From: Oscillospiraceae bacterium
GTDB taxonomy: Bacteria; Bacillota; Clostridia; Oscillospirales; Oscillospiraceae
Assembly (NCBI GenBank): GCA_017552325.1
Contig: JAFZQE010000020.1
Span: 1-41,441, forward strand
Length of the DNA: 41,441 nucleotides
Direction of reading: 5' to 3'
Shown here in pieces: positions 9,233 through 38,643 of the stretch (position 1 is its first letter; the number at the start of each line of letters is the position of its first letter). Position numbers and translations under genes: made by a program. The notes below the pieces were generated by a model. The model made no database searches and was not told the DNA's origin. It worked only from the letters and a program-made list of their open reading frames with translations.

Positions 9233-9285
9233 GCGCGGCCGTTCCGCCGCGGAAGCTTGCCGGAACAGGCGAAAGGAGAACCACG

Positions 9286-20337: not shown

Positions 20338-20724
20338 TCATGGATCGGGCTGCCCGGACGCGCCGCGCGCTAAGGCGCCTTCGTCCGGCACGACGATCTC
20401 CCGGACGCTGAATTCCCGCCCGCTCAGGACGGTCTTCTCAAAGCTGCCGCAGTTGGGGCAGTAGCCCTTGTGCTCGATGACGTTGAAGATCTCGTCGCAG
20501 TCGTCGCACTCGGCGAGGCCCGGCACCATGCGGATCGTCAGCTTCGCGTCCTGCAGGAGGCTGCCCTTTGCCGCCACGGGATAGAGCTCCTCGAGATACT
20601 CCGGGATCACCAGCGACAGCTCGCCGCAGTCGACGACGACCTCACGGATGTCGCTCACGCCGTTTTCGGCGGCGAAGGCCTCCACCGTCCGGACGAGCTG
20701 GCGCAGGATGCCGATCTCATGCAT
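20338..20724 (-). CDS. hypA: HypA-like nickel metallochaperone
   Basis: 128 residues. HypA delivers Ni2+ to [NiFe]-hydrogenase or urease. Seen: the N-terminal MHEIGILRQLV, with His2, the nickel ligand, and the zinc site C-x2-C ... C-x2-C (CDDC and CPNC). The ATG at 20724 is chosen because HypA must begin Met-His; a GTG three codons upstream was rejected. ATGCATGA overlaps the stop of the upstream flavoprotein gene, so it is coupled into the redox operon. No hydrogenase or urease gene is visible here. The last 20 residues are a non-conserved tail. Confidence 0.88.
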   Translation of the reverse strand: MHEIGILRQLVRTVEAFAAENGVSDIREVVVDCGELSLVIPEYLEELYPVAAKGSLLQDAKLTIRMVPGLAECDDCDEIFNVIEHKGYCPNCGSFEKTVLSGREFSVREIVVPDEGALARGASGQPDP

Positions 20725-23398: not shown

Positions 23399-23458
23399 AT
23401 TCACCTCTCCCTTCTTGACAGCAGCCGGGAGCGCGGGGTGCTCCCGGCCTGAGGATGC

Positions 23459-24670
23459 TCAATAAAACTCGCCCGGGATCTCCAGCACGAGATCGGAGGT
23501 CGGGAAGCTGCAGCAGGGGTGGATGTAGCCGTAGTGCACGTCGGCCCAGCGGCGCATCTCGTTCTCCGGCGGGATGAAGACCGTGCCTTCGATCAGGCGC
23601 GAGCGGCACCAGCCGCACTCGCCGGCGCGGCAGCGGGACGGGGCCTTGATCCCGGCGCGCTCCAGGGCGACCAGTACCGGCTCGTCGGCGGAGGCGGGGA
23701 TGGTCCAGGTCTGCGGGCCCTGCTTCACGGTGATCTCAAAGCTCGCGCCCTCCTCCAGGTCCTTCGGATAGCCCTCGCAGGCCCAGGGGGTCTTGGTCAC
23801 GTCGATCAGCTTGCGGCGGAACAGGCGCTCGGGCAGGCCGAGCTCGGCGATCTCGGGCTTCAGGAAGCGGTACATGGCCTCCGGCCCGCAGAGGAACACG
23901 GAATAAGCCTCTCCCTCAGGGGCGTATTTCCGGATCAGCTCCGCGGTGATGAAGCCCTGCTCAAAGCCCTCCTTCTCTTCGTCGGAAAGCACGTGGACCA
24001 CCTTGAACTTCGGGCAGACCCGGGCGATCTCGTCCAGCTCGCCGCGGAAGAGGATGTCCTCCTCGGTGCGCGAGCCGTAGAGCAGGGTCAGCGTGAAGTC
24101 CTCGATGCCGTCGCAGATCGCGCGGGCCATCGAGAGGAAGGGCGTGATGCCGGAGCCGCCGGCAAGGCCGATGACCTGCTTTGCGTCGCGCAGATCCTCA
24201 TAGTAGAAGAAGCCCTGGGGCCCGGAGGCGATGACCGTGTCGCCCTGCTTTTTCTCGCTGAGCAGCCGGTCGGCCACGAAGCCGCCGGGATTGGCGCGCA
24301 CCGTGATGGCGTAAGTCCCGCTCAGCGCCTCCTTGGGGGAGGAGCAGAGCGAATAGGAGCGGGTGACGAGGCTCCCGTCGATGGGCAGCTTCAGCGAGAT
24401 GTACTGCCCCGCGCGGAAATAGGGCAGGGGCTTGCCGTCCGCGCGCTTGAGGACAAAGGTCTTGGCGTTGTTTCTGGCGATGATGCTGTCGATCGTCAGC
24501 TCCAGGAAGTCCGGATGCAGGGCCCTGGCCTTCTCGTTGACCGGGAAGACGCCGCTGATCTCGTCGGCGGGCGCGGCCTGGATCGCCTTTTCGCGGGTCT
24601 TGGCCATGTTCTTGAATTTGAGCATGTCAAATTTGCCGATCAGGCCGACCTTTACGTTCAGTTCGGACAT
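23459..24670 (-). CDS. Ferredoxin reductase with C-terminal 2Fe-2S domain
   Basis: 403 residues. Seen: FAD-binding RSYSLCSSP and GGFVADRLL, NAD(P) site GLAGGSGITPFLSMARAICD, and terminal LCGPEAMYRFL, giving a ferredoxin-NADP reductase fold. It is followed by a plant-type 2Fe-2S domain with Cys in RCRAGECGWCRSR and HPCCSF. The first 50 residues are an extra N-terminal region. It moves electrons between NAD(P)H and its own 2Fe-2S centre, then to a partner, most simply the CrtI-like flavoprotein encoded just upstream. Start at 24670: TAATG overlap with the upstream stop and AAGGAGGG ahead. Confidence 0.92.
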   Translation of the reverse strand: MSELNVKVGLIGKFDMLKFKNMAKTREKAIQAAPADEISGVFPVNEKARALHPDFLELTIDSIIARNNAKTFVLKRADGKPLPYFRAGQYISLKLPIDGSLVTRSYSLCSSPKEALSGTYAITVRANPGGFVADRLLSEKKQGDTVIASGPQGFFYYEDLRDAKQVIGLAGGSGITPFLSMARAICDGIEDFTLTLLYGSRTEEDILFRGELDEIARVCPKFKVVHVLSDEEKEGFEQGFITAELIRKYAPEGEAYSVFLCGPEAMYRFLKPEIAELGLPERLFRRKLIDVTKTPWACEGYPKDLEEGASFEITVKQGPQTWTIPASADEPVLVALERAGIKAPSRCRAGECGWCRSRLIEGTVFIPPENEMRRWADVHYGYIHPCCSFPTSDLVLEIPGEFY

Positions 24671-26217
24671 TATGCTTTCCCTCCTTCCCACTCTTTCAGA
24701 TCCTTGAGGGCGTTGGCGGCCATCAGCTGGCCGCAGATGATCGTGGCGGAATAGCCGTCGCCGCGCGGGCCGGCCGCGCCGATCGGGCGCAGGCCTTTGA
24801 TCGGGTAGTCCGCGCCGAGCATCATCATGCGCGCCATCATGCCGTCCCAGTCGCGGGTCTCATAGCCGTAGACCGAGCCCTCGGGCACGCCGAGGAAACG
24901 GGCGAAGGTCAGCGGCGAGGCGACCTCCATCTCCTCGATGTGGCCGCTGAGGTCGATGCCGGTCTTCTCTTTGAGGATGCGCAGCATCTTCTTCGCGCCC
25001 TCGTTCTTGAACTTGAAATAGTCCTTCTGCTCGAGCGCCGCCCACTCGTCCGGCGCGCCGAAGGTCGTGAAGGAGCAGACGCAGGTCCCGGGGGCGGAGA
25101 AGCCGGGATTGGCGATGTTGTAGCACAGGAAGATCGTGTAGTCGTTGGTCTTCATGCCGCCCTGGATGTTCCGGTATTCCTCGGCGGAATCGGCCGTGCC
25201 GGACAGGAAGATGCTGTAGTCCTCGATCCCCAGCTCCTCGGGCGTGGCGTCCAGGCAGAAGTAGGCGGTGTACATGCGCCCGCCCATGATCCGGCCGCGG
25301 GCCTTGGAGAGCTTCTTCTCACGCTCGGGGATCAGCTCCTTCGGCATCATTTTGCCGTAGATGATGTCCGGGTTGATGTTCGCCAGGCAGTAGTCGCAGT
25401 CGATCACGCCCAGGTTCGTGCGCAGGCCGCAGAGCCTGTCCCCCTCGAAGAGGAACTCCTCGGCCCGGCAGTTGAACCAGATCTCGCCGCCGAGCTCCCG
25501 GAAGCGCTCCACCATCGCGGTGGACAGCTGGTGGGAGGTGTGCGCCGGGATGTAGGCGCTGCGGGAGACGTACTTGTGCACCATGGCCGCGTAGTGGATG
25601 AAAGCCAGATGCTCCATGTCCACGCCCAGATAGCTCCAGTAGGTGGACAGGATGTCCTGGCACTTCTGCGGCAGCTTCAGCGCCTTGAACACCTTCTTGG
25701 TGCTGTAGGCGCCGGTGCGCAGCATATTCGGGTACTTCGCCTGCAGCACCTTGGAGTCCGCGTGGCCCTTCGAGGCCGTGATGTAGGCGATGCCGTCCAG
25801 CACCTCCTGGAAGAGGTCGAAGAGCTGCTGCGTCTTCTCGCGCGAGCCGGGGACGTACTCCTCCATCTTGTCGATGAAGGCCTCGATGCCCGAGGGCATG
25901 GTCACGTCCATCGGCGAGCCGTCCGAGTATTTCGAGACGATGCGGAAGCAGTCCTTGCACTCGTACCAGTCCAGCTTCACGCCGTAGGCGTCCAGGATGT
26001 TGCGGACGTCGCCGGGGTTGTCCGCCGGGCCGAAGTCGCACAGCTCGTGCAGCGAGGGCTCGATCTCAAAGCGGCCGCGCACAAAGCTGGTCGCCGCGCC
26101 GCCCGGGACGTTGTGCTGCTCGATCAGCAGCGTCTTCTTCCCGGCCAGCCGGCACTGCAGGGCCGCGGACAGTCCGGCGTTGCCGGCGCCCACGACCACA
26201 ATGTCATATTTGGGCAT
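24670..26217 (-). CDS. CrtI/CRTISO-like FAD-dependent oxidoreductase
   Basis: 515 residues. Seen: the N-terminal dinucleotide-binding stretch VVVGAGNAGLSAALQC followed by PGGAATSF, which is the phytoene desaturase / carotenoid isomerase / retinol saturase signature, and a C-terminal FAD contact GLRPIGAAGPRGDGYSA. Family members reduce, desaturate or isomerise C=C bonds of lipophilic substrates; the substrate here is unknown, and no carotenoid genes are near. AAAGGAGG precedes the ATG. First gene of a - strand operon with a clear promoter, coupled by TAATG to the ferredoxin reductase. Confidence 0.88.
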   Translation of the reverse strand: MPKYDIVVVGAGNAGLSAALQCRLAGKKTLLIEQHNVPGGAATSFVRGRFEIEPSLHELCDFGPADNPGDVRNILDAYGVKLDWYECKDCFRIVSKYSDGSPMDVTMPSGIEAFIDKMEEYVPGSREKTQQLFDLFQEVLDGIAYITASKGHADSKVLQAKYPNMLRTGAYSTKKVFKALKLPQKCQDILSTYWSYLGVDMEHLAFIHYAAMVHKYVSRSAYIPAHTSHQLSTAMVERFRELGGEIWFNCRAEEFLFEGDRLCGLRTNLGVIDCDYCLANINPDIIYGKMMPKELIPEREKKLSKARGRIMGGRMYTAYFCLDATPEELGIEDYSIFLSGTADSAEEYRNIQGGMKTNDYTIFLCYNIANPGFSAPGTCVCSFTTFGAPDEWAALEQKDYFKFKNEGAKKMLRILKEKTGIDLSGHIEEMEVASPLTFARFLGVPEGSVYGYETRDWDGMMARMMMLGADYPIKGLRPIGAAGPRGDGYSATIICGQLMAANALKDLKEWEGGKA

Positions 26218-26278
26218 TTGTCATTCCTCCTTTTGTTTGATCCGTTCCGTTGGCTGCCTGTTCTGTCAGAATAATAAT

Positions 26279-26307
26279 ATTTTAACATACTTCCCGGAGC
26301 GCTTCAA
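26279..26307 (-). promoter_or_regulatory. Promoter of the redox operon
   Basis: On the - strand, TTGAAG (26302-26307), 17-base spacer, TAAAAT (26279-26284), 61 bases before the ATG. The rest of 26218-26530 holds this promoter and a hairpin; I see no gene in it. Confidence 0.65.
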
Positions 26308-26459
26308 TCGCTCCGTAAAAGGCAGGATGACGAAATTCGGGCCGGTCTCTTGGACAGAATCACGAAGCCGCCCCCGCCGGGCCGGGAGAATTGCCAGCAT
26401 CTGGTTTTCCCGCTCATGCCGCCCCGGCCGCCCACGGGAGCGGGTCTCTCCCTGAATGG

Positions 26460-26490
26460 CAGAACAGGGACTCGTCGAGTCCCTGTTCTG
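26460..26490 (-). terminator. Hairpin after the SLOG-membrane effector gene
   Basis: Perfect 14-bp stem (26460-26473 with 26477-26490), 3-base loop, 41 bases beyond the stop codon. It lacks a T-run on the - strand, so it may be a weak terminator or an mRNA-end stabiliser. Confidence 0.6.
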
Positions 26491-26530
26491 TGAGTCGTAT
26501 GTTTGTGCTTTGCCGGAGCGGCCCTTCGCC

Positions 26531-28135
26531 TCAGATGCTGACGTCCGGCGTGTTGTCCCGCTGATAGGAGCACCAGTTGCCGTTCTCGATCAGCTCCTCC
26601 CGGGCCAGCATGGCCAGCAGCTTTTCCGTCTGTCCGCGTTTTTCGAGCTCCGCGGACATTTTGGCGTAAAACCGCTCCATCTTCCGATGGTCGGAGAGCG
26701 TCCGGGGCAGCGAAAGGCGGCCGTAATAATTCGCGACAAACAGCGTCACGGCGGAGATCGTCCCCAGCAGGATCTTCAGCACCGTGCGCCAGAGCTCCAC
26801 GTCCGCGACCGCCACGAAGGGGCGGAAGATAAGGCCGCCGCAGATCAGCTCGTATCCCACGCCAAGCAGATAGAGCCCGACGCACAGGACCAGCGCAAAG
26901 CCAACGGTTCGATCGCTCGCGGCGAGCTTCTGCCCGGCCCCTTTGGAGGCCTTTCGATGATACTCCCTCTGCTCTTCCACCCAGCAGGCGCGGATGTCGT
27001 GCGCCTCCGCCGGCGGCTCCCCGACCGTCAGCGCGCTGAGGGCGTCCATCACCCAGGCGGTCTCCTCCTGCTGGGTCCAGGAGAGCAGGTCGGTCGCCTG
27101 GATGCGGCTGCCCGCATAGCGCAGATAGGTCTGCACCCGCAGGCATTCCGCAAGCACGCGGTATTCGATGTAGCGGCGGTGGCAGTCGGAGTGCACGGCA
27201 TAACGCCGGCAGCCCCAGGCGGCGATCAGCATCACGCCGCAGACGAGGATCATCCAGATCGCCTGCGCCTCGTCATACATCAGAAACGCAAAGGTCAGCA
27301 GGGCGCCGGCCGCGGCGAGCAGAGCCAGCACGCGCCGGTATCGCCGGGCGAACTGCCGGCTCAGCTTGCCCGCCGCGCGGCTGACCGTTTCCATTTTCTC
27401 CAGCGCGGGCTCTGTTTCGCAGCCGAAGGGCAGTCTGGAGCCCGCGTCCGTGGATATGTCTGCCGCGTTCCGGTTGAAGTCGTCCGTCTTGCGAAGGATG
27501 TCGAGGACCGCCTGCCAATTTCCCAGAATGTGAACCGTGCCGGCCGCTTCTTCCGCGCATTCCCCGCGCGGCGTGAAAACGTGGATCACGGCTTCGTTGC
27601 TGTCGGAGCGCGGGGCAAGGCCCGCGGCGGAATCATAATTGCCGCCGAGAGCAAACTCCACAGCCTCCGCAGTCCCGCAGGCCGTCTCCGTGCCCGGGCC
27701 GCCGTCCCAGAGGGCCAGCAGCACGTGGCTGTGGGCAGCCACATAGATGGCAGCCTGCCGGAACTGATAGGCTCTCGTCTGCCCGTCCTCGGGTAGCGGC
27801 TCCGTGGAGGGCGCGGCAAATACCTGTCCGGCGCGAGCGCAGTGGTGCCGGAAACGCTGTATCGTTTCCTCGCCGAAATCCTGCTCATAGTCGTCCCGCT
27901 CTCTCGGGAGCGCCGCGATCAGCGGGATGCCAAGCTCCTCCGCCGCGTCGGCGCAGAGCAGGTCTCCGCCCTCGGCCAGAGAGCTGAGCATGACGAGAGG
28001 CGTGAAGGGACAGAGCTCGCGCAGTTTCTTCAGTTCATTTTTTACCGCAGTCCGGAGCGCGGCCTCATCCTCTGCGCGTATCGCGCGATGCCCCGCCACT
28101 CCTATCATCAGGGGGATCGTCCGGTTCTTTGTCAT
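26531..28135 (-). CDS. SLOG-domain protein with four membrane helices (SLATT-like effector)
   Basis: 534 residues. The N-terminal ~165 residues form a Rossmann-like SLOG domain: IPLMIGVAGHRAI, then LSSLAEGGDLLCADAAEELG, DDYEQDFGEE and LLALWDGGPGTETACGTAEA. SLOG domains bind nucleotide-type second messengers. Then come membrane segments at about 268-286, 293-308, 411-432 and 452-469; the helix after the first pair reads RRYIEYRVLAECLRVQTYL, the mark of SLATT membrane effectors. Prediction: the ligand binds SLOG and the membrane part opens or disrupts the membrane. ATG at 28135 follows GGAGAG at 7 bases. A GTG at 28192 overlapping the upstream stop (GTGA) is an alternative. Second gene behind HD-RyR. 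Confidence 0.78.
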   Translation of the reverse strand: MTKNRTIPLMIGVAGHRAIRAEDEAALRTAVKNELKKLRELCPFTPLVMLSSLAEGGDLLCADAAEELGIPLIAALPRERDDYEQDFGEETIQRFRHHCARAGQVFAAPSTEPLPEDGQTRAYQFRQAAIYVAAHSHVLLALWDGGPGTETACGTAEAVEFALGGNYDSAAGLAPRSDSNEAVIHVFTPRGECAEEAAGTVHILGNWQAVLDILRKTDDFNRNAADISTDAGSRLPFGCETEPALEKMETVSRAAGKLSRQFARRYRRVLALLAAAGALLTFAFLMYDEAQAIWMILVCGVMLIAAWGCRRYAVHSDCHRRYIEYRVLAECLRVQTYLRYAGSRIQATDLLSWTQQEETAWVMDALSALTVGEPPAEAHDIRACWVEEQREYHRKASKGAGQKLAASDRTVGFALVLCVGLYLLGVGYELICGGLIFRPFVAVADVELWRTVLKILLGTISAVTLFVANYYGRLSLPRTLSDHRKMERFYAKMSAELEKRGQTEKLLAMLAREELIENGNWCSYQRDNTPDVSI

Positions 28136-28188
28136 CGTAGCTCTCCATCGTCCGCAGGCATTTTCCCGCGTTTCTGTGCCGTGCCGCT

Positions 28189-30219
28189 TCACAGCCGGTA
28201 GATCCGGGAGCCTTCAAACTTCTTCAGCAGCTCGAGCAGCTTGTTGAAGGGTTTCCAGTCCAGATCCCGATAGACCCGGGGCAGCCGCTGGAAATGCGCG
28301 CGGATCTCGTCGTGCGTCAGCTTGCCGTCCATGCACAGCTTGTGGCAGCGCAGCTGCTCGCGCAGCGCGGCGCGCGTCGCCTTTTCCCGCTCCTCCGGAA
28401 GGTCCAGAGGCAGCGTCTCATAGTCCGTCCCGTAGCGCCAGCCCATGGCCTGGTGCTCGCGCACCCAGCGCTCGTGCTCCATGGGGGCGAAGATCGCCGC
28501 GTCCTTCGCGCTGAAGCGCGTGACCATCTCAAAGTCGACGGGCTTGTCCGTATAGAAACAGCCGATCGCGTTCAGATAGGAGGCGAAATGACTCGTGCGG
28601 CCAAGCGTGGAGAGCCGGTATTCGAGGGAGCTGGCGTTGAATTTCTCCTCCATCTCCTCCTCGGAGGGCTCTCCGGGCATGTTCCTGGCGTGCAGGGCGA
28701 CCGCGAAGTCGAAGAAATGCAGGAAATTGCTCCCGGAGAGATAGGTGTGCTTGATCTTGCGGTTCACCCGGCGGAGCTCCAGCCTGACGGTCAGGGGGAT
28801 GGCGGCGGTATCCACGATCCGCTCGATGTCGGCGGTGAAATCCGGCCTGTCGCCCGCCATATCGCTGTATGCCTTCAGGCGCGGCTTCTTTTTCGCCGGG
28901 TCGGCCATCCACTCTTCCCGCTGCCGCTCATAGGCCTCGATCTTCTCATGCTCGGCGATGTCGTAGCAGTACACGGCGGAGACCGCCTGATTTGAAAAGT
29001 CGAAGCTCGCCGCCACGGGGTGCAGCTCCTTGCGGGACTTGCGCCCGTAGGAGGTGCGGTCCCAGCACTGCAGCTCGTCGCAGAGCATCAGCAGCCAGGC
29101 CAGCGGGTGCAGCTCCATGCGCAGCGGCGCCTTGCGCTTCTCCGGCTTTTTGTCCTTGTAAAACGAGACGGCGAATTTGTACAGGCTGTTGTGCAGCATG
29201 ATGGCGGAGAGCGCATCGACGTGCTTCGCCGTCAGGTTTTCCGGCTTCAGGATCCGGATCATCTCCTGACAGAGCCGCGCCGCGCTGAAGAAAGCGTGGT
29301 CCATGTAGTAGCCGAAATCCTCCGGATTCGTCGGCTTCCGGTTGATCACGTCCAGCATATACTCCTCGGTAAAGCCGTAGCTCTCGCCGAGTTTCTGCGT
29401 GATGTCGAAGGCGAGCAGCTCGCTTGCGGTGGAAAAGCGGCGCCCGTAAAGCTCCTCCAGCCGCTCGCCCGCCCCGGCGTCCAGTCCCGTCAGGCACTCC
29501 ACCGAGCGGTAGGCCAGGAAAAGGCTGTTCTTCCCGCGTTCCTGATTGTCCACCTCAAAGTAGCTGAGCACCTGCTCGAACGGCAGCTCAAAGGGATAGC
29601 CGATGTCATGGAAGAGAGAAGTCAGCCCCCAGTATTCCAGAAACACGTTGGCCGCGTCGTTCTCTTTTTTGTCTTCCAGGTGATAGAAGCTCCGAAAACT
29701 GCGCCGGTACGCCTCGTTGGTCTCGTAGATCGCAAGGCCGAGCGCAAACACGTAGACCGAATGGGAATAGTGATCCCTGTGCTTCATCAGCAGGGAGCTC
29801 CCGTTGGCCTCGTATTCGCTCAAAAGCTCCACCATCCGCTTGGACTTGCCGTACTGCCCGAAGAAAAGCTCCAGAAAGCAGTAGTAGACCGCATAGGCGT
29901 CCTCGGCGACGCCGGAATCGATGAAGGCCTCCAGCGCCTTTTCCAGGCACAGGCGTTCCAGATCCATCTGCATGTTGTAGGGGATATCCCCGGTCTTCAG
30001 GCTCTGTCCGAGAAAGCGGCCGGTCCCGTTCTCCTCCGCCTCCTTCGCCGCGTCGAAGCGGAGCTCTTCACAGCGGTTGTGCAGGAAGCGGAGCGCGGCG
30101 GATTTGAGGTCGTCGCGCTGCCTCCGGTTGGTGTAGAGGGGAGGCTGCATCGGCCCGACGTCGGCGCCGAAACGGGCTTCGTTTCTCTTTCGCATGCTTT
30201 CGATCGCGGTATAAGCCAT
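28189..30219 (-). CDS. HD-domain phosphohydrolase fused to a C-terminal RyR domain
   Basis: 676 residues. An HD-type metal phosphohydrolase core is visible: H153 in RDHYSHSVYVFALG, H204-D205 in LTSLFHDIGYPFE, H343 in MLHNSLYKFA and D381 in MLCDELQCWDR, the H...HD...H...D ligand order. Residues about 575-650 match the RyR domain (FAPMEHERWVREHQAMGWRY), found in ryanodine receptors and in bacterial nucleotide-signalling systems. Suggested role: bind and hydrolyse a nucleotide signal, as off-switch or processing enzyme. ATG at 30219 follows AAGGAGG by about 10 bases; the open frame runs far upstream but that part is antisense to the TIR gene. First gene of its operon, divergent from TIR. Confidence 0.8.
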   Translation of the reverse strand: MAYTAIESMRKRNEARFGADVGPMQPPLYTNRRQRDDLKSAALRFLHNRCEELRFDAAKEAEENGTGRFLGQSLKTGDIPYNMQMDLERLCLEKALEAFIDSGVAEDAYAVYYCFLELFFGQYGKSKRMVELLSEYEANGSSLLMKHRDHYSHSVYVFALGLAIYETNEAYRRSFRSFYHLEDKKENDAANVFLEYWGLTSLFHDIGYPFELPFEQVLSYFEVDNQERGKNSLFLAYRSVECLTGLDAGAGERLEELYGRRFSTASELLAFDITQKLGESYGFTEEYMLDVINRKPTNPEDFGYYMDHAFFSAARLCQEMIRILKPENLTAKHVDALSAIMLHNSLYKFAVSFYKDKKPEKRKAPLRMELHPLAWLLMLCDELQCWDRTSYGRKSRKELHPVAASFDFSNQAVSAVYCYDIAEHEKIEAYERQREEWMADPAKKKPRLKAYSDMAGDRPDFTADIERIVDTAAIPLTVRLELRRVNRKIKHTYLSGSNFLHFFDFAVALHARNMPGEPSEEEMEEKFNASSLEYRLSTLGRTSHFASYLNAIGCFYTDKPVDFEMVTRFSAKDAAIFAPMEHERWVREHQAMGWRYGTDYETLPLDLPEEREKATRAALREQLRCHKLCMDGKLTHDEIRAHFQRLPRVYRDLDWKPFNKLLELLKKFEGSRIYRL

Positions 30220-30258
30220 GACAGGATGCCTCCTTATCGTTATGAACGTCCTGTTTTT

Positions 30259-30287
30259 AGTATACACGCCGGAGCCCGTTTGTGCAA
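30259..30287 (-). promoter_or_regulatory. Promoter of the HD-RyR / SLOG-membrane operon
   Basis: On the - strand, TTGCAC (30282-30287), 17-base spacer, TATACT (30259-30264), 39 bases before the ATG. Confidence 0.78.
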
Positions 30288-30381
30288 GAACAGCCTCCGC
30301 TCTGAGGACAAAAAAGCGAAAAAGCGGCGCGCCGCGCGCGGACTTCGGAACTGTAAACAGCAAAAGTTCTTCGGTTTTCTG

Positions 30382-30410
30382 TTGCGTCTTTCCCGCTCGC
30401 ATGGTACACT
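30382..30410 (+). promoter_or_regulatory. Promoter of the TIR gene
   Basis: TTGCGT (30382-30387), 17-base spacer, TACACT (30405-30410), 52 bases before the ATG. Faces away from the HD-RyR promoter; the two -35 boxes are about 95 bases apart. Confidence 0.65.
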
Positions 30411-30462
30411 GAACGCGAGAGGAGTCTGCCCGCGTCGTTAGCCGTCGATCGGAGGGATCTAC

Positions 30463-33135
30463 ATGGATCAGCATTATACCGCTTTTATCAGTTACCGTCA
30501 TCTGAGCCCCGACCAGGAGGTCGCCAAGTGGCTGCACACCGCCATCGAGACCTACCGGATCCCGGACGCCATCCGGAAGCAGACGGGGCGGAAGGCCATG
30601 GGCAAGTGCTTCCGCGACGCGGAAGAGCTGCCGCTGTCGCCCTCGCTGGGCGACGACATCGAGCGCGCGCTGCTCAACAGCGACTGGCTGATCGCCGTCT
30701 GCACGCCGCGCTATCTGCAAAGCCGCTGGTGCATGCAGGAGCTGGAATTCTTCGCCGCCCACAAGGGCCGCGACCGCATCCTGCTCGTGCTGGCCGAAGG
30801 CCGTCCCGCGGAGAGCATCCCGGAGATGCTCCGCTGGCGGATCGATGAAAACGGGGAGCGCGTGCCCTACGAGCCGCTGATGGCGGAGGCGCGCGGCGAG
30901 ACGATGCGCCAGCGCGTCCGGAAGCTGAAGGTGGAGAAGTTCCGCATTCTGGCGCCGATCCTCGGCGTGGGCTTCGACGATCTGCGCCGCCGGGCGCGGC
31001 AGCGCCGCATCCGCGTGATCGCGGGCGTGACCGCGGCGGTGATCGCCGCCGGCGCCGGGCTGGGCGTCTATGTGGCGGCAAACCGCGCCAAAAACGAGCG
31101 CCTGCGCCGGGAGGCGGAGGAACAGCAGCTCCTGGCGGAAGAGCAGGAGCGCGTGGCCCGGCAGGAGCGCCTGCGCGCCGCGGAAAACAGCATCGGCGAA
31201 TACCTGGAGCGCGCCGCCGCGGAGCTCGGCGGGCAGGAGCACATCAGCGCCGCCAACACGCTGCTGGACGCGCTGAGCCTCAGCGCGCAAAACCGCGACC
31301 TCCGGCGCGACGAGATCATCGCCGCGCTGCGAAAGACCATGTATATCGAGCCCTTTGCACCAATTGCCGGCTTCTCCAACCAGAACACCCGCCTGCTGGA
31401 CATCGTCCCCTCGCCGGACGGAAGGCTGGCCGTTGGCATTGAAAACAACAATTCCGCCGCGCTCATCGACCTGGAGGAGAACGCGCTGCGCTTCAAGGTC
31501 TCCGTGGACAACGGACAGATCAGCTCCCTGCGCTTTTCCCCGGACGGAACGCGCTTCACCGCCCTGTGCGACATGGGGCGTCTCGTCACGGTCTGGAACA
31601 CCTCGGACGGCTCGGTGGCCTTCAGCTACACCAGTGAGGCGAACGAACGCTACCAGATCGCCAACGCCTTCTTCTGGAAGGACGCGGACACGCTGCTCGT
31701 GCAGGACATGGAGCACTTTTACCTCGTGTCCTCCGACGGCTCGAAGCAGCTCCTCTACACGATGGGGGATCATCAGGACTGGTATGACCCCGAGGTCAAC
31801 CTCATCACGCTGATCTTCGAGCGTCCGCTGGACGAGATGTTCACGCTCCACAGCGAGGACTACACCGGCACGCTGATCCTCTGCACGCCGGACCGCTCCC
31901 GGATGCTGGTGGGCGGCCTGGTCGGCGAGGTCGGCATGATCCTGCTCGACAGCGACGGCGCGCTGGTCGCCCCGCTTCAGCTCATGCCGGGGACCATCTG
32001 GGAAAAATACGCGCTCAGCGACGACGGGTCGAAGGTGGCCTGCGTCTCGTCCTTCGGCTATGTCGCGGGCTGGGACGGCAGCACCGGCGATCTGACCTAC
32101 CTCTACGTCCCGGAGGTCGGCGACGGCAACGGCGGCTTCCACACGATCAGCACGCCGGTCTTTTCGCCGGACGGGGCCTATCTGAGCTATGTGATGGACG
32201 ACACGCTCTTCATCACCGACGCGCAGACGGGCGACCGGCTGGTGATGGGCAGCATGGCCGAGACGAACTATACGCCGGATCTGGCCTACAGCGCCGACGG
32301 CGGCTATCTCTTCGTCACCGACCAGTCCCTGTATATCATCGACGCCGCGGGGCGCCTGTTCCAGATGCTGGAGTCGGACGCCGCGGCGCCCTATAACAAC
32401 GTGGTGCAGCTGGGCGAGCGCATGCTCATCACGAAGGGCGACGGCACGGCCTACGTCTGCTGCACGCCTTCCGCCGCCTCGATCCGCAGCATCGGCAGCG
32501 ACGAGGTCCCCGCGCTCTGCGAGCATCTTGATCCGCACAGCCCGCCGGCGGACGATCCCTTTACGGATCTTCACTCCGAGCATGAGCTGACGGAGGCTTT
32601 CAGCATGAACACCTGGCTGTCTGCCGAGGAGCTCGCGCCGAAGCTCTGGTTTTCGACGGACGGGCGCCGGGCGGCCCTCAGCTACGCCGACGGCGTCATC
32701 GAGCTCTACGAGGCCGGGGACGGCGGCCGGGTGAGCGCGATGCTGAGCCAGTTCCTCCAGCCGATCAGCGCCCTGGCGATGTCGGAGGACCGGCTCGTGG
32801 TCTCCGACAGCAACGGCCGGCTGATGTTCTACGATCTGAATCGCGGCTCGGTCATCAACATCCGCAGCACCGACTCGCCCTGCACGGATTTCGCCTTCAG
32901 CGCGGACCAGGACAAGCTGATGGCCCTGCGCGCGGACGGCGTGATCGACGTCTACGATCTGGCGGCCGACGAGCTGCTCTTCTCCATCCGCTCTCCGGAG
33001 CCCGTCACGGGCTTCGGCTTTGCCGAAGACGGAAGCTGTGCGGTCGCGCTGACCGAATCCGGCGCGCTGCGCGCGGAGCTGTGGACGGACGAAACGGCGC
33101 TGCTGGCCTATGCCAGAGCGATCACCGGGCGCTGA
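30463..33135 (+). CDS. TIR-domain protein with membrane helix and beta-propeller
   Basis: 890 residues. Residues 1-125 are a TIR domain: YTAFISYRHLSPDQEVAKWL, CFRDAEELPLSPSLGDDI, then SDWLIAVCTPRYLQSRWCMQE with the conserved WCxxE glutamate (E93) that is catalytic in NAD-cleaving TIRs. One membrane helix lies at about 184-205, a charged coiled coil at 206-240 (NERLRREAEEQQLLAEEQER), and from about 295 WD40/TolB-like propeller repeats such as LRFSPDGTRFTALCDMGRLV. The TIR is cytoplasmic and the propeller should face outside, so an outside ligand could control the NADase. GGAGGG lies 7 bases before the ATG. Divergent from the HD-RyR/SLOG operon. Confidence 0.88.
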   Translation: MDQHYTAFISYRHLSPDQEVAKWLHTAIETYRIPDAIRKQTGRKAMGKCFRDAEELPLSPSLGDDIERALLNSDWLIAVCTPRYLQSRWCMQELEFFAAHKGRDRILLVLAEGRPAESIPEMLRWRIDENGERVPYEPLMAEARGETMRQRVRKLKVEKFRILAPILGVGFDDLRRRARQRRIRVIAGVTAAVIAAGAGLGVYVAANRAKNERLRREAEEQQLLAEEQERVARQERLRAAENSIGEYLERAAAELGGQEHISAANTLLDALSLSAQNRDLRRDEIIAALRKTMYIEPFAPIAGFSNQNTRLLDIVPSPDGRLAVGIENNNSAALIDLEENALRFKVSVDNGQISSLRFSPDGTRFTALCDMGRLVTVWNTSDGSVAFSYTSEANERYQIANAFFWKDADTLLVQDMEHFYLVSSDGSKQLLYTMGDHQDWYDPEVNLITLIFERPLDEMFTLHSEDYTGTLILCTPDRSRMLVGGLVGEVGMILLDSDGALVAPLQLMPGTIWEKYALSDDGSKVACVSSFGYVAGWDGSTGDLTYLYVPEVGDGNGGFHTISTPVFSPDGAYLSYVMDDTLFITDAQTGDRLVMGSMAETNYTPDLAYSADGGYLFVTDQSLYIIDAAGRLFQMLESDAAAPYNNVVQLGERMLITKGDGTAYVCCTPSAASIRSIGSDEVPALCEHLDPHSPPADDPFTDLHSEHELTEAFSMNTWLSAEELAPKLWFSTDGRRAALSYADGVIELYEAGDGGRVSAMLSQFLQPISALAMSEDRLVVSDSNGRLMFYDLNRGSVINIRSTDSPCTDFAFSADQDKLMALRADGVIDVYDLAADELLFSIRSPEPVTGFGFAEDGSCAVALTESGALRAELWTDETALLAYARAITGR

Positions 33136-33151
33136 AGCCCCGGAAAACAGC

Positions 33152-33190
33152 AAAAAGAGGGTCTCACCTGATGGGTGAGACCCTCTTTTT
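33152..33190. terminator. Bidirectional terminator at the right edge of the TIR island
   Basis: Perfect 17-bp stem (33152-33168 with 33174-33190), A-run left and T-run right. It ends TIR transcription from the left and can end the AOR operon from the right. Confidence 0.92.
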
Positions 33191-33366
33191 CTTTCCGTGC
33201 GCCGCACGGGAAGCTGTTTGCTGCCTGTCCTGATCAGGCGGATGAGTTCTTCCGCGTCTTCAAAGTCGTCGTAATCGCGGCTGATCCCGTCACGGTGACA
33301 GACGATCCCGGCTTTCTCGTTTCGTTCCGGGCAGTCCGGCAGCTCCGCCTCTCCGTATCTTTTCAC
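33191..33366 (-). pseudogene. Small ORF of the AOR operon without a stop before the terminator
   Basis: GTG at 33366, preceded by GGGAG, opens a frame with protein-like content (KRYGEAELPDCPERNEKAG, then CHRDGISRDYDDFEDAEELI). It runs straight through the terminator at 33190-33152 and on, antisense, into the TIR gene with no stop. It begins 29 bases after the ThiS-like gene. Best reading: a small gene of the AOR operon whose 3' end was lost when the TIR island arrived. The end given is the terminator edge, not a stop codon. Family not recognised. Confidence 0.4.
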
Positions 33367-33395
33367 GAAAACTCCCGCCTGTGGCGGACGCTGAC

Positions 33396-33593
33396 TCAGC
33401 CGCCGCCCAGCAGATGGATGACCTCCAGGTCGTCCGTCTCATCCAGGACGGTGCTTCCGTATTCTTCCGGCCAGATCACCGTTCCGTTGCGCTTTACGAC
33501 CAGCTTGGGCCAGGTAAAGGTATTCTCCTCGATCACGTCCCGGACGGTGAGGCCTTCCCGCCAGCTCTTGTACTCTCTGTAGTTCAGGATCAT
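33396..33593 (-). CDS. ThiS/MoaD-family small sulfur-carrier protein
   Basis: 65 residues with a beta-grasp pattern and C-terminal Gly-Gly-Gly (EVIHLLGGG), the tail that is adenylated and thiocarboxylated in ThiS and MoaD. Seen: MILNYREYKSWREGLTVRDV, LVVKRNGTVI and TVLDETDDLEVIHLLGGG. Directly follows the AOR gene (one-base gap; AAGGAAGG upstream), so it most likely supplies sulfur for the pterin dithiolene of the AOR cofactor. The divergent ThiF/MoeB-like gene at 36472 is its likely activating enzyme. Confidence 0.85.
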   Translation of the reverse strand: MILNYREYKSWREGLTVRDVIEENTFTWPKLVVKRNGTVIWPEEYGSTVLDETDDLEVIHLLGGG

Positions 33594-33594
33594 C

Positions 33595-35820
33595 TCAGAC
33601 GCCTTCCTTCGCGAGCAGCGGTTCGATCACTTCCAGCAGCTCCGGAAGATCCATGCCCAGTTCCCTGAGGTGCTCGACGGTGGGAACGCCGTTCAGGGTC
33701 CAGCCTCTCTTCGGATAGACGGCGTCGATCAGCGTCTGGTAGCGGGCCTCCCGGAATTTCCGGGTGGCCGCCATTCTCTCCTGCAGAGACATGCTTTTGA
33801 CCTGCTCCGGCGTATATCCGGCAAGCTCCACCAGCTGGGTGTCGTAGCGCTCTTCCCGCCAGAGATATTCATCCTCGAAAACGGGACCGGCGCTGCGGTA
33901 AGGAATGGCGTCGTCGGCGCGCAGGCCCTTCCCCATGCGGATGTTGAAGATGCGCTGGAAATTGTAGACCCTTTCCGACTGGCGGATCATCTCTTTGGTG
34001 TCGATCCGTTTGCCGGTCACGCCGTAATAGAGGTTCAGGTAATTCTCCACGTGCTCCGGCACCATCTTCGGGTCGTCCGTCAGGGCGTTGTCCGCGGGAA
34101 CGATATCGTTCCAGGGCAGCTTGCACAGGCCCATCAGTCCGAACCAGGTGCGGAACATGGGATAGAAGTACAGCGCTTCCGCCTTGTCCTCAAAGGTGGG
34201 GATCTGGTTGTTGACCTGGTCCATGAAGATCAGCCAGGCCTCGTCGTGCTGCGGGCCCTTGTTCGTCAGGCCGTAGCCGCCCTGCTGCGCCAGGGATTCC
34301 TTGGCGGAGTACTCCGAGTATTCCAGGCCCTTCTGTTCCATGCCGAAATCGTTCATTTCCGCCAGGTCGCCCCAGCCCATTTCGGCGAAGTATGCCTTCT
34401 GCTTGTGAATGCCCAGGGCGGCGATCTTCCCGAAGCCCTCGTTTCGGGCCATCCGGTGCATCAATTCCAGATCGTCGGCGGCATTGCCCCAGCTCAGGTC
34501 GAGCCCGCCGGTGCGCTCTCTGTTCAGGATCCCCCGCTCGTAGCATTCCATCAGGAAGGCGGTCATGGTCCCGTAGGAGATCGTATCCAGCCCGTAGGTA
34601 TCGCAGTAGAAATTGATCTCCAGGACCTCCTGGGGATTGTAGATCCCGCAGGCCGGGCCGAGACCGGCGGCGCTTTCGTACTCCGGCCCGTCCACGCAGA
34701 CCCGCTGTCCCTTGTAAGGACCCGTTTTCAGCAGGAAGTGGTCGGAAGCCTTCGCGCAGGCCATGGAACAGCCGTACCAGCAGCCGTCCGCCGCGCCCTG
34801 CGTCAGCCAGTCCTTCTTGAAAACGGCGGCCGTCATCTCGTCGATGCCGGGCGCGTCGCCGAATTTGAAGTTGTTGGTGGGGACGATGTCGTAATCCGCC
34901 AGCGTACGCAGGGAATACGCCGTGCCTACGCCGCGCATGTCGTTCTGGTGGATATCGTTGTTCGCGATCTCGCGGTGGAACTTCACGCCCGTTTTGTTGA
35001 TCAGGCCGATATCCGCCACATGGTTCAGGTTCGCCTTGACGCCGTCGATCCTGCAGACCAGGGCCTTGATCCGCTTGTCGCGGAACACGCGGCCGATGCC
35101 GCCGCGCCCCGCCTGCTTCAGACGGGTCACGCCGCGCCGGGGATCGTAGAAGGAAAAGTTCAGCATGCCCATGTTGCAGTAGTCCGCCGCGGAACCGGCC
35201 GCCACCACGGCGACGTTCATCTTGTCCTTTTCATCCTTCGCGTAGAGGCTGGTCAGCTCCTCGCAGAGCACGTGCGCGTCAAAATGCTCCAGCGGGGCTT
35301 CTTCAAAGGTGATCGTGCCCGTCGTGGCGTCGATCACGACGATGACGTCCGTCTCGGATTTTCCTTTCAGCTCCAGCGCGTCAAAGCCGGCGAATTTCAG
35401 GTAGGGCCCGAAAAAGCCGCCGACGTTGGAATCGACCGGGATATCCGTCAGGGGGGAGATCGTGCAGATCAGGGTCTTTCCCGTGCCGCCGTACTGGGTG
35501 ATGCCGGCGATCGGCCCGGCCGACATGACGATCTCGTTTTCCGGGGAATCCCAGCGCGTGGAAGGATTCACCGCGTCCCAGAGATAGCGGAGGCAGTAGC
35601 CCTTTCCACCGATGAACTTCTCTTTTACCTCGGCAGGAATATCCGAAACGACGGCTTCCTTCGCGCCGAGGTCCACGGTCAGGATCTTGTCCGTATAACC
35701 GCGCTCAAGCGGCGTTTTTTCATAAGAGAAGGATCTCAGAAGCACATGCTTTTCACGCATCTGCTTCAGTTCGTCCTCGGAGATCGCATGATATCTGGGC
35801 ACATCACAAATATGGATCAT
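33595..35820 (-). CDS. Tungsten-type aldehyde:ferredoxin oxidoreductase family protein
   Basis: 741 residues. AOR enzymes oxidise aldehydes (or reduce acids) with a tungstobispterin and one 4Fe-4S cluster, using ferredoxin. Seen: LTVDLGAKEAVVSDIPAE, then KFIGGKGYCLRYLWD (AOR N-domain), GPIAGITQYGGTGKTLI and VGGFFGPYLKFAGFDALEL. Cluster cysteines lie in CWYGCSMACAK (C-x3-C-x3-C) with a late Cys in LMGLCKLPWNDI. Its N-terminus has about 35 extra residues. ATG at 35820 follows GGAGGAGG. A four-cluster ferredoxin gene lies 14 bases upstream and a ThiS-like gene one base downstream, making a full redox unit. The aldehyde substrate is unknown. Confidence 0.93.
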   Translation of the reverse strand: MIHICDVPRYHAISEDELKQMREKHVLLRSFSYEKTPLERGYTDKILTVDLGAKEAVVSDIPAEVKEKFIGGKGYCLRYLWDAVNPSTRWDSPENEIVMSAGPIAGITQYGGTGKTLICTISPLTDIPVDSNVGGFFGPYLKFAGFDALELKGKSETDVIVVIDATTGTITFEEAPLEHFDAHVLCEELTSLYAKDEKDKMNVAVVAAGSAADYCNMGMLNFSFYDPRRGVTRLKQAGRGGIGRVFRDKRIKALVCRIDGVKANLNHVADIGLINKTGVKFHREIANNDIHQNDMRGVGTAYSLRTLADYDIVPTNNFKFGDAPGIDEMTAAVFKKDWLTQGAADGCWYGCSMACAKASDHFLLKTGPYKGQRVCVDGPEYESAAGLGPACGIYNPQEVLEINFYCDTYGLDTISYGTMTAFLMECYERGILNRERTGGLDLSWGNAADDLELMHRMARNEGFGKIAALGIHKQKAYFAEMGWGDLAEMNDFGMEQKGLEYSEYSAKESLAQQGGYGLTNKGPQHDEAWLIFMDQVNNQIPTFEDKAEALYFYPMFRTWFGLMGLCKLPWNDIVPADNALTDDPKMVPEHVENYLNLYYGVTGKRIDTKEMIRQSERVYNFQRIFNIRMGKGLRADDAIPYRSAGPVFEDEYLWREERYDTQLVELAGYTPEQVKSMSLQERMAATRKFREARYQTLIDAVYPKRGWTLNGVPTVEHLRELGMDLPELLEVIEPLLAKEGV

Positions 35821-35834
35821 TGTTTCCTCCTCCG

Positions 35835-36230
35835 TCAGTCTTCCGCGATCCGGATGGCGCCGGTGGGACATACCTTCGCACAGATCCCGCAGGCCGTGCA
35901 TTTGGAAGGCTCCAGCCGCTCGTCGCTCTGCACCATCACCTGTTCCGGACAGAAGCCGACGCACATCAGACAGCCGACGCAATCTTTCTTCCGGATCATG
36001 TACACGCCCCCGGGATTTGCCTGAATAACGCAGGAGTTGCAGACCTCCGCGCATTTTCCGCACTGATCGCAGACGTGGATTATCGGTCTGTTTTTCCCGT
36101 CGATTTCCCTGTCCTCGATCCGGATGCAGGCAAAGGCCGGGTCGCTCGTCTTGTAATAGGCTTCGGCACAGGCAGCTTCACACTGATGACAGCCGATGCA
36201 CAGCGATTCATCCTTTATCAGACGTTTCAT
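35835..36230 (-). CDS. Polyferredoxin with four 4Fe-4S motifs (AOR partner)
   Basis: 131 residues with four Cys motifs: CIGCHQCEAAC, CDQCGKCAEVC, CVGCLMCVGFCP and CTACGICAKVCP. The pattern is that of DMSO-reductase-type electron subunits (HycB/CooF-like) that accompany AOR in anaerobes and take its electrons. ATG at 36230 follows AAGGAGG by 7 bases; a GTG two codons upstream is less likely. First gene of the AOR operon, with a clear - strand promoter at 36324-36352. Confidence 0.92.
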   Translation of the reverse strand: MKRLIKDESLCIGCHQCEAACAEAYYKTSDPAFACIRIEDREIDGKNRPIIHVCDQCGKCAEVCNSCVIQANPGGVYMIRKKDCVGCLMCVGFCPEQVMVQSDERLEPSKCTACGICAKVCPTGAIRIAED

Positions 36231-37407: not shown

Positions 37408-38607
37408 TTACTCGCAAAACTCTACCGTTGTACAATCATTAAAACTCGCAAAGCGGCGGAGCGTCCGGTCAAGTGAGAGCTGCAGCTTTTTGGTCTGCCG
37501 GACGCCGGGTTCAAGCCAGATGTTTTTGACGCGGAGTGTTCTGCTTTTCTGATCAGACGCCGCCTCGATCCGTCCGATGAAGTCGCCGCCCCAGAGGACA
37601 GGCAGGGTATAATAGCCGTATTGCCTTTGGCCGGCAGGCGTATAGATCTCCCATGAGTAGCGGAAATCCCAGAGAGCGGCAACCAGCGTCTTGTCCCAAA
37701 GCAGCGGGTCAAGCGGCGCCAGGAACTCCATACGCGCTTTTTGATCTGTCGTTCCCGCAAGAACCGCCTGCATCAGCGGCTCGTCCTCTGTGAGATAATA
37801 AAACACCGGCCTGATCCCTTCGATCTGTGCGGGCTGTATCGCGCCGCGCTCTTCCAGCGCGGAAAAAGCAGACTTGCGCTGCTCCGCGTTTAATTCGATG
37901 CCCAAAAGGGCAGGCGAACTCCTGTCCCAGAGCAGGCCGACCGCTCCGATCCGCCGCAGAACGCGCCAGCACAGCAGCTCCTTGTCATCGGCGCAGGGAC
38001 AATCTGCTGTCAGCAGCGATTTCTTCAAATGGCGCTCAGCCAGATCATAAAACTTCCGGGAACCGTTTTTGTGATGGATTACGAGAGTCCCGTCGGTATA
38101 CAACTGTTCCAGGACTGACCGGGCAGCCTTGGACTTCTTATGCCAATTCCCGCTCCAATGCATCGACGAGTGCCAGAAAATCTCGCCGCTGATGGGGAGC
38201 GTATCGCCGGAAACAGGGCCGTTTGCCCGAATATAAGCCAGCGCTTCCTGTTCCAGCTCCGCAAGCCCGGGAAAACCGGCGCCAAGCTCACGGCTGCGTT
38301 CCCGATAGGGAGAAAAATACGGCCAATCTTCTGCGGGCCAGATAGAGAGTTCCTTGTCTGCGTAGTCCACCAGCAGCCGGTCCTTGTACAAAAGCTCCGC
38401 CAACATGGACTTTCGAAATCCTTTTACCCTCGATTGCAGGGTAAGTTCCGCGTTCTTTCCGCACACGTCCACAGGGTCGTACTGAATACAGCCGGCTTGC
38501 CGTACATAGGCATAAGCGCCGTCTTTGCCGGAAAAACGATAGCTGCCAAGCAATCCCTGCTTGGCCAGAATGAACATTCGTGCCTGCTCTTTTGTCAGCA
38601 CTGTCAT
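37408..38607 (-). CDS. YcaQ/AlkX-type DNA glycosylase (winged-helix DUF1006)
   Basis: 399 residues. YcaQ-family proteins unhook interstrand crosslinks and remove bulky alkylated bases. Seen: the N-terminal winged helix with catalytic QxD motif CIQYDPVDV (Q42, D44), and the C-terminal block LAPLDPLLWDKTLVAALWDF, then RQYGYYTLPVLWGGDFIGRI, as in YcaQ. ATG at 38607 follows GGAGGG at 7 bases; a TTG five codons upstream is less likely. Base composition is clearly lower in GC than the 5' half of the window. It stands alone with its own promoter, next to the mobile element. Confidence 0.9.
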   Translation of the reverse strand: MTVLTKEQARMFILAKQGLLGSYRFSGKDGAYAYVRQAGCIQYDPVDVCGKNAELTLQSRVKGFRKSMLAELLYKDRLLVDYADKELSIWPAEDWPYFSPYRERSRELGAGFPGLAELEQEALAYIRANGPVSGDTLPISGEIFWHSSMHWSGNWHKKSKAARSVLEQLYTDGTLVIHHKNGSRKFYDLAERHLKKSLLTADCPCADDKELLCWRVLRRIGAVGLLWDRSSPALLGIELNAEQRKSAFSALEERGAIQPAQIEGIRPVFYYLTEDEPLMQAVLAGTTDQKARMEFLAPLDPLLWDKTLVAALWDFRYSWEIYTPAGQRQYGYYTLPVLWGGDFIGRIEAASDQKSRTLRVKNIWLEPGVRQTKKLQLSLDRTLRRFASFNDCTTVEFCE

Positions 38608-38643
38608 CCGTTTTCCCTCCAAAGATCAAAATCAGCTATGTTG

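What the first reader, a model, noticed from the sequence alone, without database searches (positions are those of the whole stretch)
26531..33190. Candidate new immune/signalling system: TIR-propeller + HD-RyR + SLOG-membrane effector
Three genes across one divergent promoter region carry TIR (with the WCxxE glutamate), SLOG, RyR and HD domains plus SLATT-like membrane helices. From established work, TIR enzymes make NAD-derived signals that SLOG domains sense (Thoeris), and RyR, SLATT and HD domains recur in predicted nucleotide-centred conflict systems. No cyclic-nucleotide synthetase is present, so TIR is the natural signal maker. Proposed circuit: the outside propeller senses a trigger, TIR makes the signal, SLOG-membrane kills or arrests the cell, and HD-RyR binds or destroys the signal.
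Basis: partly seen in the sequence, partly recalled or inferred. Interest (0 to 1): 0.92.

Follow-up and report, generated by a model that had tools for sequence, protein, structure and literature searches.

The report
TIR immune module with RyR enzyme
A bacterium carries a small gene set in which one protein probably makes a warning molecule from the cofactor NAD and two other proteins, one in the membrane and one an enzyme, probably respond to it; the set recurs, reshuffled, in related bacteria, which points to a little-known kind of bacterial alarm or immune system.

Summary
The three genes are real and under purifying selection. A (30463-33135 +) is a TIR-transmembrane-WD40 protein with the catalytic glutamate; B (28189-30219 -) an HD phosphohydrolase with a C-terminal RyR domain; C (26531-28135 -) a SLOG-like domain with two 2-TM (SLATT-like) units. 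B's six HD ligand positions are identical in 97 of 97 aligned relatives, its RyR motif in 95-96 (rest gaps). The association is not chance: a TIR lies in B's flank in 36 of 47 genomes (1.3 expected); C is on B's strand in 29 of 29 linked loci; C occurs in 32 of 47 B-positive genomes and 0 of 341 B-negative ones sampled in the order. Distant genomes hold the pairs separately: TIR-WD40+C without detected B, and TIR+B without detected C. So TIR is the hub, and B and C look like alternative signal-gated partners, here combined. B's TIR partner switches type repeatedly (WD40, LRR, TPR). The layout is Thoeris-like with no known Thoeris effector. I favour B and C as effectors gated by an ADP-ribose-type signal; B as off-switch is the main rival. 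Activity, signal, phage defence and structure are untested, and one highly relevant preprint could not be read.

The parts
30463..33135 (+). Gene A: TIR - one TM helix - coiled linker - WD40-type propeller(s), 890 aa
   Evidence: 87%-class relative in G188 and dN/dS 0.108/0.634
30484..30804 (+). TIR_2 domain of A (aa 8-114); catalytic-type Glu 93 (WCxxE) at 30739-30741
   Evidence: Pfam TIR_2 47.5 bits, cut-off 28; Glu aligned in 7 of 7 TIR-WD40, 30 of 30 TIR-LRR, 22 of 22 TIR-TPR
31015..31071 (+). Predicted transmembrane segment of A (aa 185-203)
   Evidence: Hydropathy scan
28189..30219 (-). Gene B: HD phosphohydrolase with C-terminal RyR domain, 676 aa
29020..29832 (-). HD region of B (about aa 130-400): H153, H204-D205, H308, H343, D381
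   Evidence: Invariant in 97 of 97 aligned sequences; sub-cut-off Pfam HD hits at this place in relatives
28192..28542 (-). RyR domain of B (about aa 560-676): H582, W585, W594, D654
   Evidence: 12.4 bits in the window protein; 55.9/59.9 bits in relatives L134/L135; residues in 95-96 of 97, rest gaps
26531..28135 (-). Gene C: SLOG-like domain plus two 2-TM (SLATT-like) units, 534 aa
   Evidence: same strand as B in 29 of 29 linked loci
27491..28123 (-). SLOG-like N-terminal part of C
   Evidence: YAcAr (SLOG) in 14 of 22 members at E<=0.1, best 7.1e-6; under the cut-off where bits were shown
26696..27403 (-). Two membrane units of C (TM at aa 269-287, 291-309, 413-431, 451-469)
   Evidence: Hydropathy; DUF4231 in 20 of 22 members at E<=0.1, on the first pair where located
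30220..30462 (.). Divergent intergenic region; sigma-70-like site for B with second hexamer TATACT ending at 30259
   Evidence: 5 promoter-like sites in 25900-33700, 0.8 expected; none reads into A from this region at that threshold
33152..33190 (.). 17-pair hairpin with T-run, candidate terminator past A; listed on the - strand, the stem being near-palindromic with A/T runs on both sides

Best explanation
A Thoeris-like TIR signalling module with two signal-gated partners. Gene A senses a trigger through its propeller, and its TIR domain turns NAD+ into an ADP-ribose-type second messenger (inferred from the conserved Glu). Gene C binds the messenger with its SLOG-like domain and disturbs the membrane through its 2-TM units (inferred). 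Gene B binds it with its RyR domain, which switches on the HD metal centre as a second, enzymatic effector, of phosphodiesterase or nuclease type (inferred). The outcome would be growth arrest or death of a stressed or infected cell. Shown: the architectures, the invariant motifs, and the recurrent non-random association of TIR with B and with C, including pairs without the third gene. Not shown: any activity, the signal, or a phage phenotype.
For: TIR in the flank of B in 36 of 47 genomes against 1.3 expected; C on B's strand in 29 of 29 loci and downstream in 28; C in 32 of 47 B-positive genomes and 0 of 341 B-negative ones of the order sample. TIR-WD40 next to C with no B found in G566 and G663, and B next to TIR with no C found in G754 and G819, so each can be the TIR's partner. 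Glu kept in 59 of 59 TIRs of the three main types and lost in 25 of 25 small partner proteins. RyR domains of phages bind or cleave 2'/3'cADPR, with H75, W78 and D117 in the pocket (PMC13232231); B keeps H-x-x-W and the Asp. TIR-type partner of B changes repeatedly on the B tree, as for an exchangeable sensor. HD enzymes gated by nucleotide signals exist in defence (Clover, PMC12265719).
Against: No activity or structure was obtained. G104 (99% complete) has B but no TIR by two profiles and no C. 10 of 58 well-flanked B loci have neither TIR nor C nearby, and several sit among housekeeping genes. The window is flanked by redox metabolism. C's domain labels are under curated cut-offs. B lacks the HE dyad of dNTPase-type HD effectors, so its substrate is open.
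Confidence: 0.46

Rival explanations
1. B is the off-switch. A makes the signal, C is the effector, and HD-RyR captures and destroys the messenger (by its HD centre, or by a RyR glycosidase as in phage RyDEP) to prevent leaky killing.
For: RyDEP shows that a RyR domain can cleave 2'/3'cADPR with a His-Asp dyad (PMC13232231); B keeps a His and an Asp at the RyR motif positions. B and C are often adjacent, within 300 bases in 16 of 29 loci.
Against: TIR+B occurs with no C found (G754, G819), and 15 of 47 B-positive genomes have no C found, so the TIR would lack a known effector there; TIR-WD40+C occurs without B found (G566, G663). In the preprint 7 of 8 tested RyR homologues did not cleave the signals.
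Confidence: 0.28
2. The module is a general stress or envelope-sensing circuit (propeller, LRR, TPR and kinase-linked) and not phage defence.
For: Metabolic flanks; kinase-LRR or kinase-TPR genes in 9 and 8 of 91 loci; B loci in housekeeping contexts; no defence island in the window.
Against: Patchy distribution (B in 4 of 345 order and 5 of 391 class genomes), repeated partner exchange, and some loci by a relaxase, recombinases or a CRISPR-type repeat array.
Confidence: 0.17
3. A and the B-C pair are independent genes that lie side by side by accident in this window.
For: The exact TIR-WD40 trio is linked in only 3 of 91 loci, and parts can be unlinked (G011, G188).
Against: TIR-WD40 adjoins C in distant genomes (G566, G663), and adjoins B without linked C in others (L015, L062, L075, L098); G188 keeps all three though unlinked.
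Confidence: 0.06

Closest known systems
Thoeris (types I, II, IV: TIR ThsB plus SIR2-SLOG, TM-macro or caspase-like effector)
   Same: A TIR NADase-type protein and partners with an ADPR-type ligand domain in one locus (PMC12847820 passage)
   Different: Partners are SLOG + two 2-TM units and HD-RyR; no SIR2, macro or caspase found in A, B or C; A matches ThsB models only weakly (21.2 bits) and NCBIfam ThcB4 at 18.2 of 220 bits
Phage RyDEP / RyR-domain (R12) proteins
   Same: RyR domain with HxxW and a conserved Asp; ligands 2'/3'cADPR (PMC13232231)
   Different: Here host-encoded, fused to an HD domain, and next to TIR genes; RyDEP is a stand-alone phage anti-Thoeris protein
Clover (CloA dGTPase, CloB nucleotidyltransferase)
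   Same: HD-domain enzyme under nucleotide-signal control in defence (PMC12265719)
   Different: B has no HE dyad at the spacing given for CloA, has a RyR domain, and its recurrent partner is a TIR, not a nucleotidyltransferase
Predicted TIR/SLOG/SLATT/RyR nucleotide-centred conflict systems (Burroughs and Aravind 2015, recalled, not held; Iyer/Burroughs-type survey PMC9503650, passages)
   Same: The same domain vocabulary; TIR-SLATT neighbourhoods in phages are noted in PMC9503650
   Different: I could not check whether the HD-RyR fusion or the TIR-WD40/SLOG-2TM pair is in the 2015 paper
TIR-based systems of Yirmiya et al. 2025 (preprint 10.64898/2025.12.03.692087; citation seen only)
   Same: Systematic search for TIR signalling systems; cited for a type VI Thoeris that uses 2'cADPR
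   Different: Not held; may already contain one or both pairs

Membership tests
Thoeris | TIR protein with catalytic Glu | tested here: met
   TIR_2 47.5 bits; Glu 93 aligned with 59 of 59 TIRs of the WD40, LRR and TPR types
Thoeris | Known effector (SIR2-SLOG, TM-macro or caspase-like) in the locus | tested here: not met
   No such family in A, B or C by Pfam, PADLOC or NCBIfam
Thoeris | NAD-derived signal activates the partner; phage protection | not testable with these tools
   Needs LC-MS, binding and plaque assays
RyR domain (PF02026) | Pfam match over the cut-off | tested here: inconclusive
   Window protein 12.4 of 27.4 bits: not met; distant B relatives 55.9 and 59.9 bits: met
RyR domain (PF02026) | Ligand-pocket residues (HxxW, Asp) | tested here: met
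   H582 and W585 in 96 of 97, D654 in 95 of 97, rest gaps; equated with RyDEP H75, W78, D117 by motif, not by structure; RyDEP H100 not placed
HD superfamily | H...HD...D motif | tested here: met
   H153, H204-D205, D381 and also H308, H343 invariant in 97 of 97
HD superfamily | Pfam HD over its cut-off | tested here: not met
   9 of 48 members at E<=0.1, best 0.013; bits shown were under 22
dNTPase-type HD effector (Clover CloA, dGTPase) | HE catalytic dyad after HD | tested here: not met
   No His at aa 206-216 of B; P213 and Q216 at CloA's spacing (sequence; residues of CloA)
SLOG / SLATT | Family models over curated cut-offs | tested here: inconclusive
   YAcAr in 14 of 22, DUF4231 in 20 of 22 at E<=0.1; NCBIfam SLATT_3 at most 23.5 of 45 bits among those scanned

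The most novel reading that the evidence does not exclude
HD-RyR is a new host-side class of NAD-signal effector: a ryanodine-receptor-type ligand domain gating a six-ligand HD enzyme, used as the partner of exchangeable TIR sensors (WD40, LRR, TPR), alone or together with a SLOG-membrane effector, so that one TIR signal fires two effectors at once.
Probability: 0.4. Interest if true: 0.87.

Novelty: new variant of a known kind. Interest (0 to 1): 0.74.

Why it matters
If true, RyR domains would be host receptors of TIR-made signals in bacteria and not only phage counter-defence, which would make the old question of how cADPR came to act on RyR-type domains testable in bacteria. It would add two effector architectures (HD-RyR and SLOG with two 2-TM units) to TIR signalling, and a case of one TIR wired to two effectors. 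The natural pairs (TIR+C, TIR+B) make the logic testable gene by gene.

Tried and rejected
Chance neighbourhood: rejected. Fixed three-gene operon: rejected, partners change and can be unlinked. B as an ordinary dNTPase: HE dyad missing. Plasmid or well-described phage origin: no plasmid match and one unannotated 8.3 kb record deposited as phage, which resembles the chromosomal locus of G290; one IMG/VR contig with a MobA/MobL relaxase. RyR family in the own genome: no hit, and no control rang, so uninformative. PDB profile search with B: human RyR3 only at E 0.6. Structures of B and C were never obtained, so no fold search was made. Rfam on 26000-34000: nothing at the gathering score. Papers: searches; in the last, 16 papers held at least four of RyR, TIR, prokaryotic, defense systems, SLATT, HD domain, and only PMC13232231 held RyR more than once (listing only). 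What I saw: PMC13232231 parts 1-3 and 5 of 6 and passages; PMC12265719 outline, abstract and passages; PMC9503650, PMC12847820, PMC13142454, PMC7016017 passages only. Yirmiya et al. 2025 is known to me only from citations (not held); Burroughs and Aravind 2015 is recalled (not held). I do not claim that the pairs are unpublished.
Full report
What is there. The three genes are intact: A 30463-33135 (+), B 28189-30219 (-), C 26531-28135 (-). B and C are a tight co-directional pair; A is divergent across 243 bases, and a 17-pair hairpin lies past its end at 33152-33190. All three show purifying selection against the homologues in genome G188 (dN/dS: A 0.108/0.634, B 0.114/0.514, C 0.258/1.15). 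The window is contig 25 of a 2.09 Mb genome in 83 contigs, given as 75% complete, in which A holds the only TIR_2 match.

Domains. A: TIR_2 at 47.5 bits (cut-off 28), Glu 93 in WCxxE, one TM segment at 185-203, and WD40-type propeller matches. B: the window protein alone gives only 12.4 bits for RyR (cut-off 27.4). The family settles it: RyR in 20 of 48 members at E<=0.1, 55.9 and 59.9 bits in the distant members L134 and L135, and the residues E581, H582, W585, W594 in 96 of 97 and D654 in 95 of 97 aligned sequences, the rest being gaps (G593 and G597 in 92; a few rows are near-identical). Before it lies H153, H204-D205, H308, H343, D381, invariant in 97 of 97. The two extra His recall two-metal HD enzymes (recalled, not tested); the HE dyad of dNTPases is absent. 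C: SLOG-like N-terminus and two TM pairs; YAcAr in 14 of 22 and DUF4231 in 20 of 22 members at E<=0.1. The bit scores that I saw for C's family are under the curated cut-offs, so C's labels are the weakest.

Is the association real? A profile scan for B in named genomes found 365 relatives; the tool kept the best 80. With the window, eight family loci, the phage-labelled contig L022 and the IMG/VR contig L103, I examined 91 loci. L020 (contig-end fragment) and L021 (an AAA-RyR protein) were dropped before the count; L013 and L056 are one contig held twice, so 90 are distinct. A TIR frame lies in 62 of 91, C in 29, and all three kinds in 23. Of 58 loci with at least 5 kb on both sides, 46 have TIR, 23 have C and 10 have neither. 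For 47 whole genomes (8 from the family search and 39 of the 80 named ones, chosen by me), TIR lies in the held flank in 36 against 1.3 expected from each genome's TIR_2 count, and within 3 kb in 29 against 0.5. My TIR profile is broader than TIR_2, so the expectation is somewhat too low. TIR_2 occurs in 46 of these 47 genomes and in 28 of 120 genomes of the family. Within that sample I assign 6 of 7 B-positive and 22 of 113 B-negative genomes as TIR_2-positive (Fisher 6e-4), assuming that G104, which is not shown in the cut list, was in it.

C follows B. C is on B's strand in 29 of 29 loci, downstream in 28, and within 300 bases in 16 (15 of them downstream). Genome-wide, C is in 32 of 47 B-positive genomes, three of them partial. 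By the listed coordinates it lies within 15 kb of B in 22, 40 kb away on the same contig in one, and on other contigs in nine. In an order sample, C was in 1 of 345 genomes and B in 4, the C-positive one being the window's own. The Fisher test of 32 of 47 against 0 of 341 gives about 1e-35; the genomes are related and the 47 were picked through B, so this is an indication, not a probability.

The pairs come apart. In a class sample of 391 genomes C was found in 3 (the window's, G566, G663) and B in 5 (the window's, G621, G686, G754, G819). In G566 and G663, TIR-WD40 is directly followed by C. In G754 and G819 a shorter HD-RyR is directly followed by a TIR gene. In G621 and G686 no TIR adjoins B, but one lies elsewhere. 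G011 keeps TIR-WD40 and C within 2 kb but B on another contig, and G188 holds all three on different contigs. So the TIR is the hub, and B and C look like alternative or joint partners.

Sensor exchange. On a quick tree of 90 B proteins the TIR type beside B needs 12 changes for LRR, 12 for TPR and 7 for WD40; LRR and TPR are more clustered than shuffled labels (0 of 500 as low), WD40 is not (101 of 500). Some long branches are unsure. The window's nearest relatives carry no TIR, a TPR type and an LRR type. In LRR-type loci a TIR with Glu (30 of 30) is paired with a small TIR-like protein without it (0 of 25). Ser/Thr kinase genes with LRR or TPR repeats occur in 9 and 8 of 91 loci; four of them were checked by Pfam.

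How it probably works. In Thoeris a TIR enzyme and an effector with a ligand domain share an operon (PMC12847820 passage). By analogy A makes an ADPR-type signal and C and B receive it. The RyR link gained weight from a May 2026 preprint: phage RyR proteins bind or cleave 2'/3'cADPR, with H75, W78, H100 and D117 in the pocket (PMC13232231). B keeps HxxW and the Asp; I could not place H100. B could use this pocket to switch on its HD centre (my preference, since TIR+B exists with no C found), or to remove the signal (main rival; but 7 of 8 tested phage homologues did not cleave it). Clover shows that an HD enzyme can be a nucleotide-gated effector (PMC12265719), but B lacks its dyad.

Against the reading. 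G104, 99% complete, has B but no TIR by two profiles and no C. Solitary B genes sit among housekeeping genes. The window's flanks are redox metabolism. Only scattered hints point to mobile or defence context: a relaxase (L103), recombinases (L110, L018), and a repeat array of CRISPR type with at least 98 copies beside the G290 locus, whose TIR frame is broken. PADLOC and NCBIfam give no hit for B; C and its relatives get only weak SLATT and ShosA matches; A and other TIRs get weak ThsB, SAVED-TIR and ThcB4 matches. Structure prediction could not be completed.

Novelty. Thoeris-like in logic, not a member of a Thoeris type that I could test: a new variant of a known kind. The TIR survey of December 2025 could not be read and may contain these pairs.

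Noticed in passing
L012, L013 and other LRR-type loci (e.g. L013 7613-8449): A small TIR-like protein of about 275 aa, without the catalytic Glu in 25 of 25, is encoded just before a catalytic TIR-LRR protein: an enzyme/pseudo-enzyme TIR pair.
   Followed up: partly
L121 19-6605 (G290), beside HD-RyR at 8396-10720: A regular array of at least 98 copies of a GTCGCCCTCTTCACGAGGGCGTGGATTGAAAT-type repeat spaced 66-68 bases (CRISPR type); cas genes were not looked for.
   Followed up: partly
L065 21827-22047: Four copies of a 24-base word at CRISPR-like spacing at the end of the locus, about 10 kb from HD-RyR.
   Followed up: no
L018 11216-12649: A 477-aa protein with RyR (29.9 bits, over the cut-off) and two predicted TM segments, divergent from HD-RyR: a possible second RyR-gated, membrane partner.
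   Followed up: partly
L021 7580-9580 (G131): An AAA-ATPase-like protein with C-terminal RyR (61.5 bits): another host RyR fusion.
   Followed up: no
L025 7985-9703, L043 15147-18758 and relatives: Ser/Thr kinase genes with LRR or TPR repeats next to HD-RyR/TIR loci in 17 of 91 loci (9 and 8).
   Followed up: partly
L015, L018, L118, L119 (G065, G185): C relatives in G065 and G185 are shortened, about 315 aa, matching only the membrane half of C: the SLOG part is missing or replaced.
   Followed up: no
window 16933-17286: An 18-base tandem repeat, about 18 copies, 86% matches.
   Followed up: no
window 20717-26217 and 33595-36063: Redox genes around the module: Fe-S/pyridine-nucleotide oxidoreductase, ferredoxin reductase-like protein, FAD oxidoreductase, aldehyde ferredoxin oxidoreductase; AlkZ-like glycosylase at 37408-38622.
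   Followed up: partly
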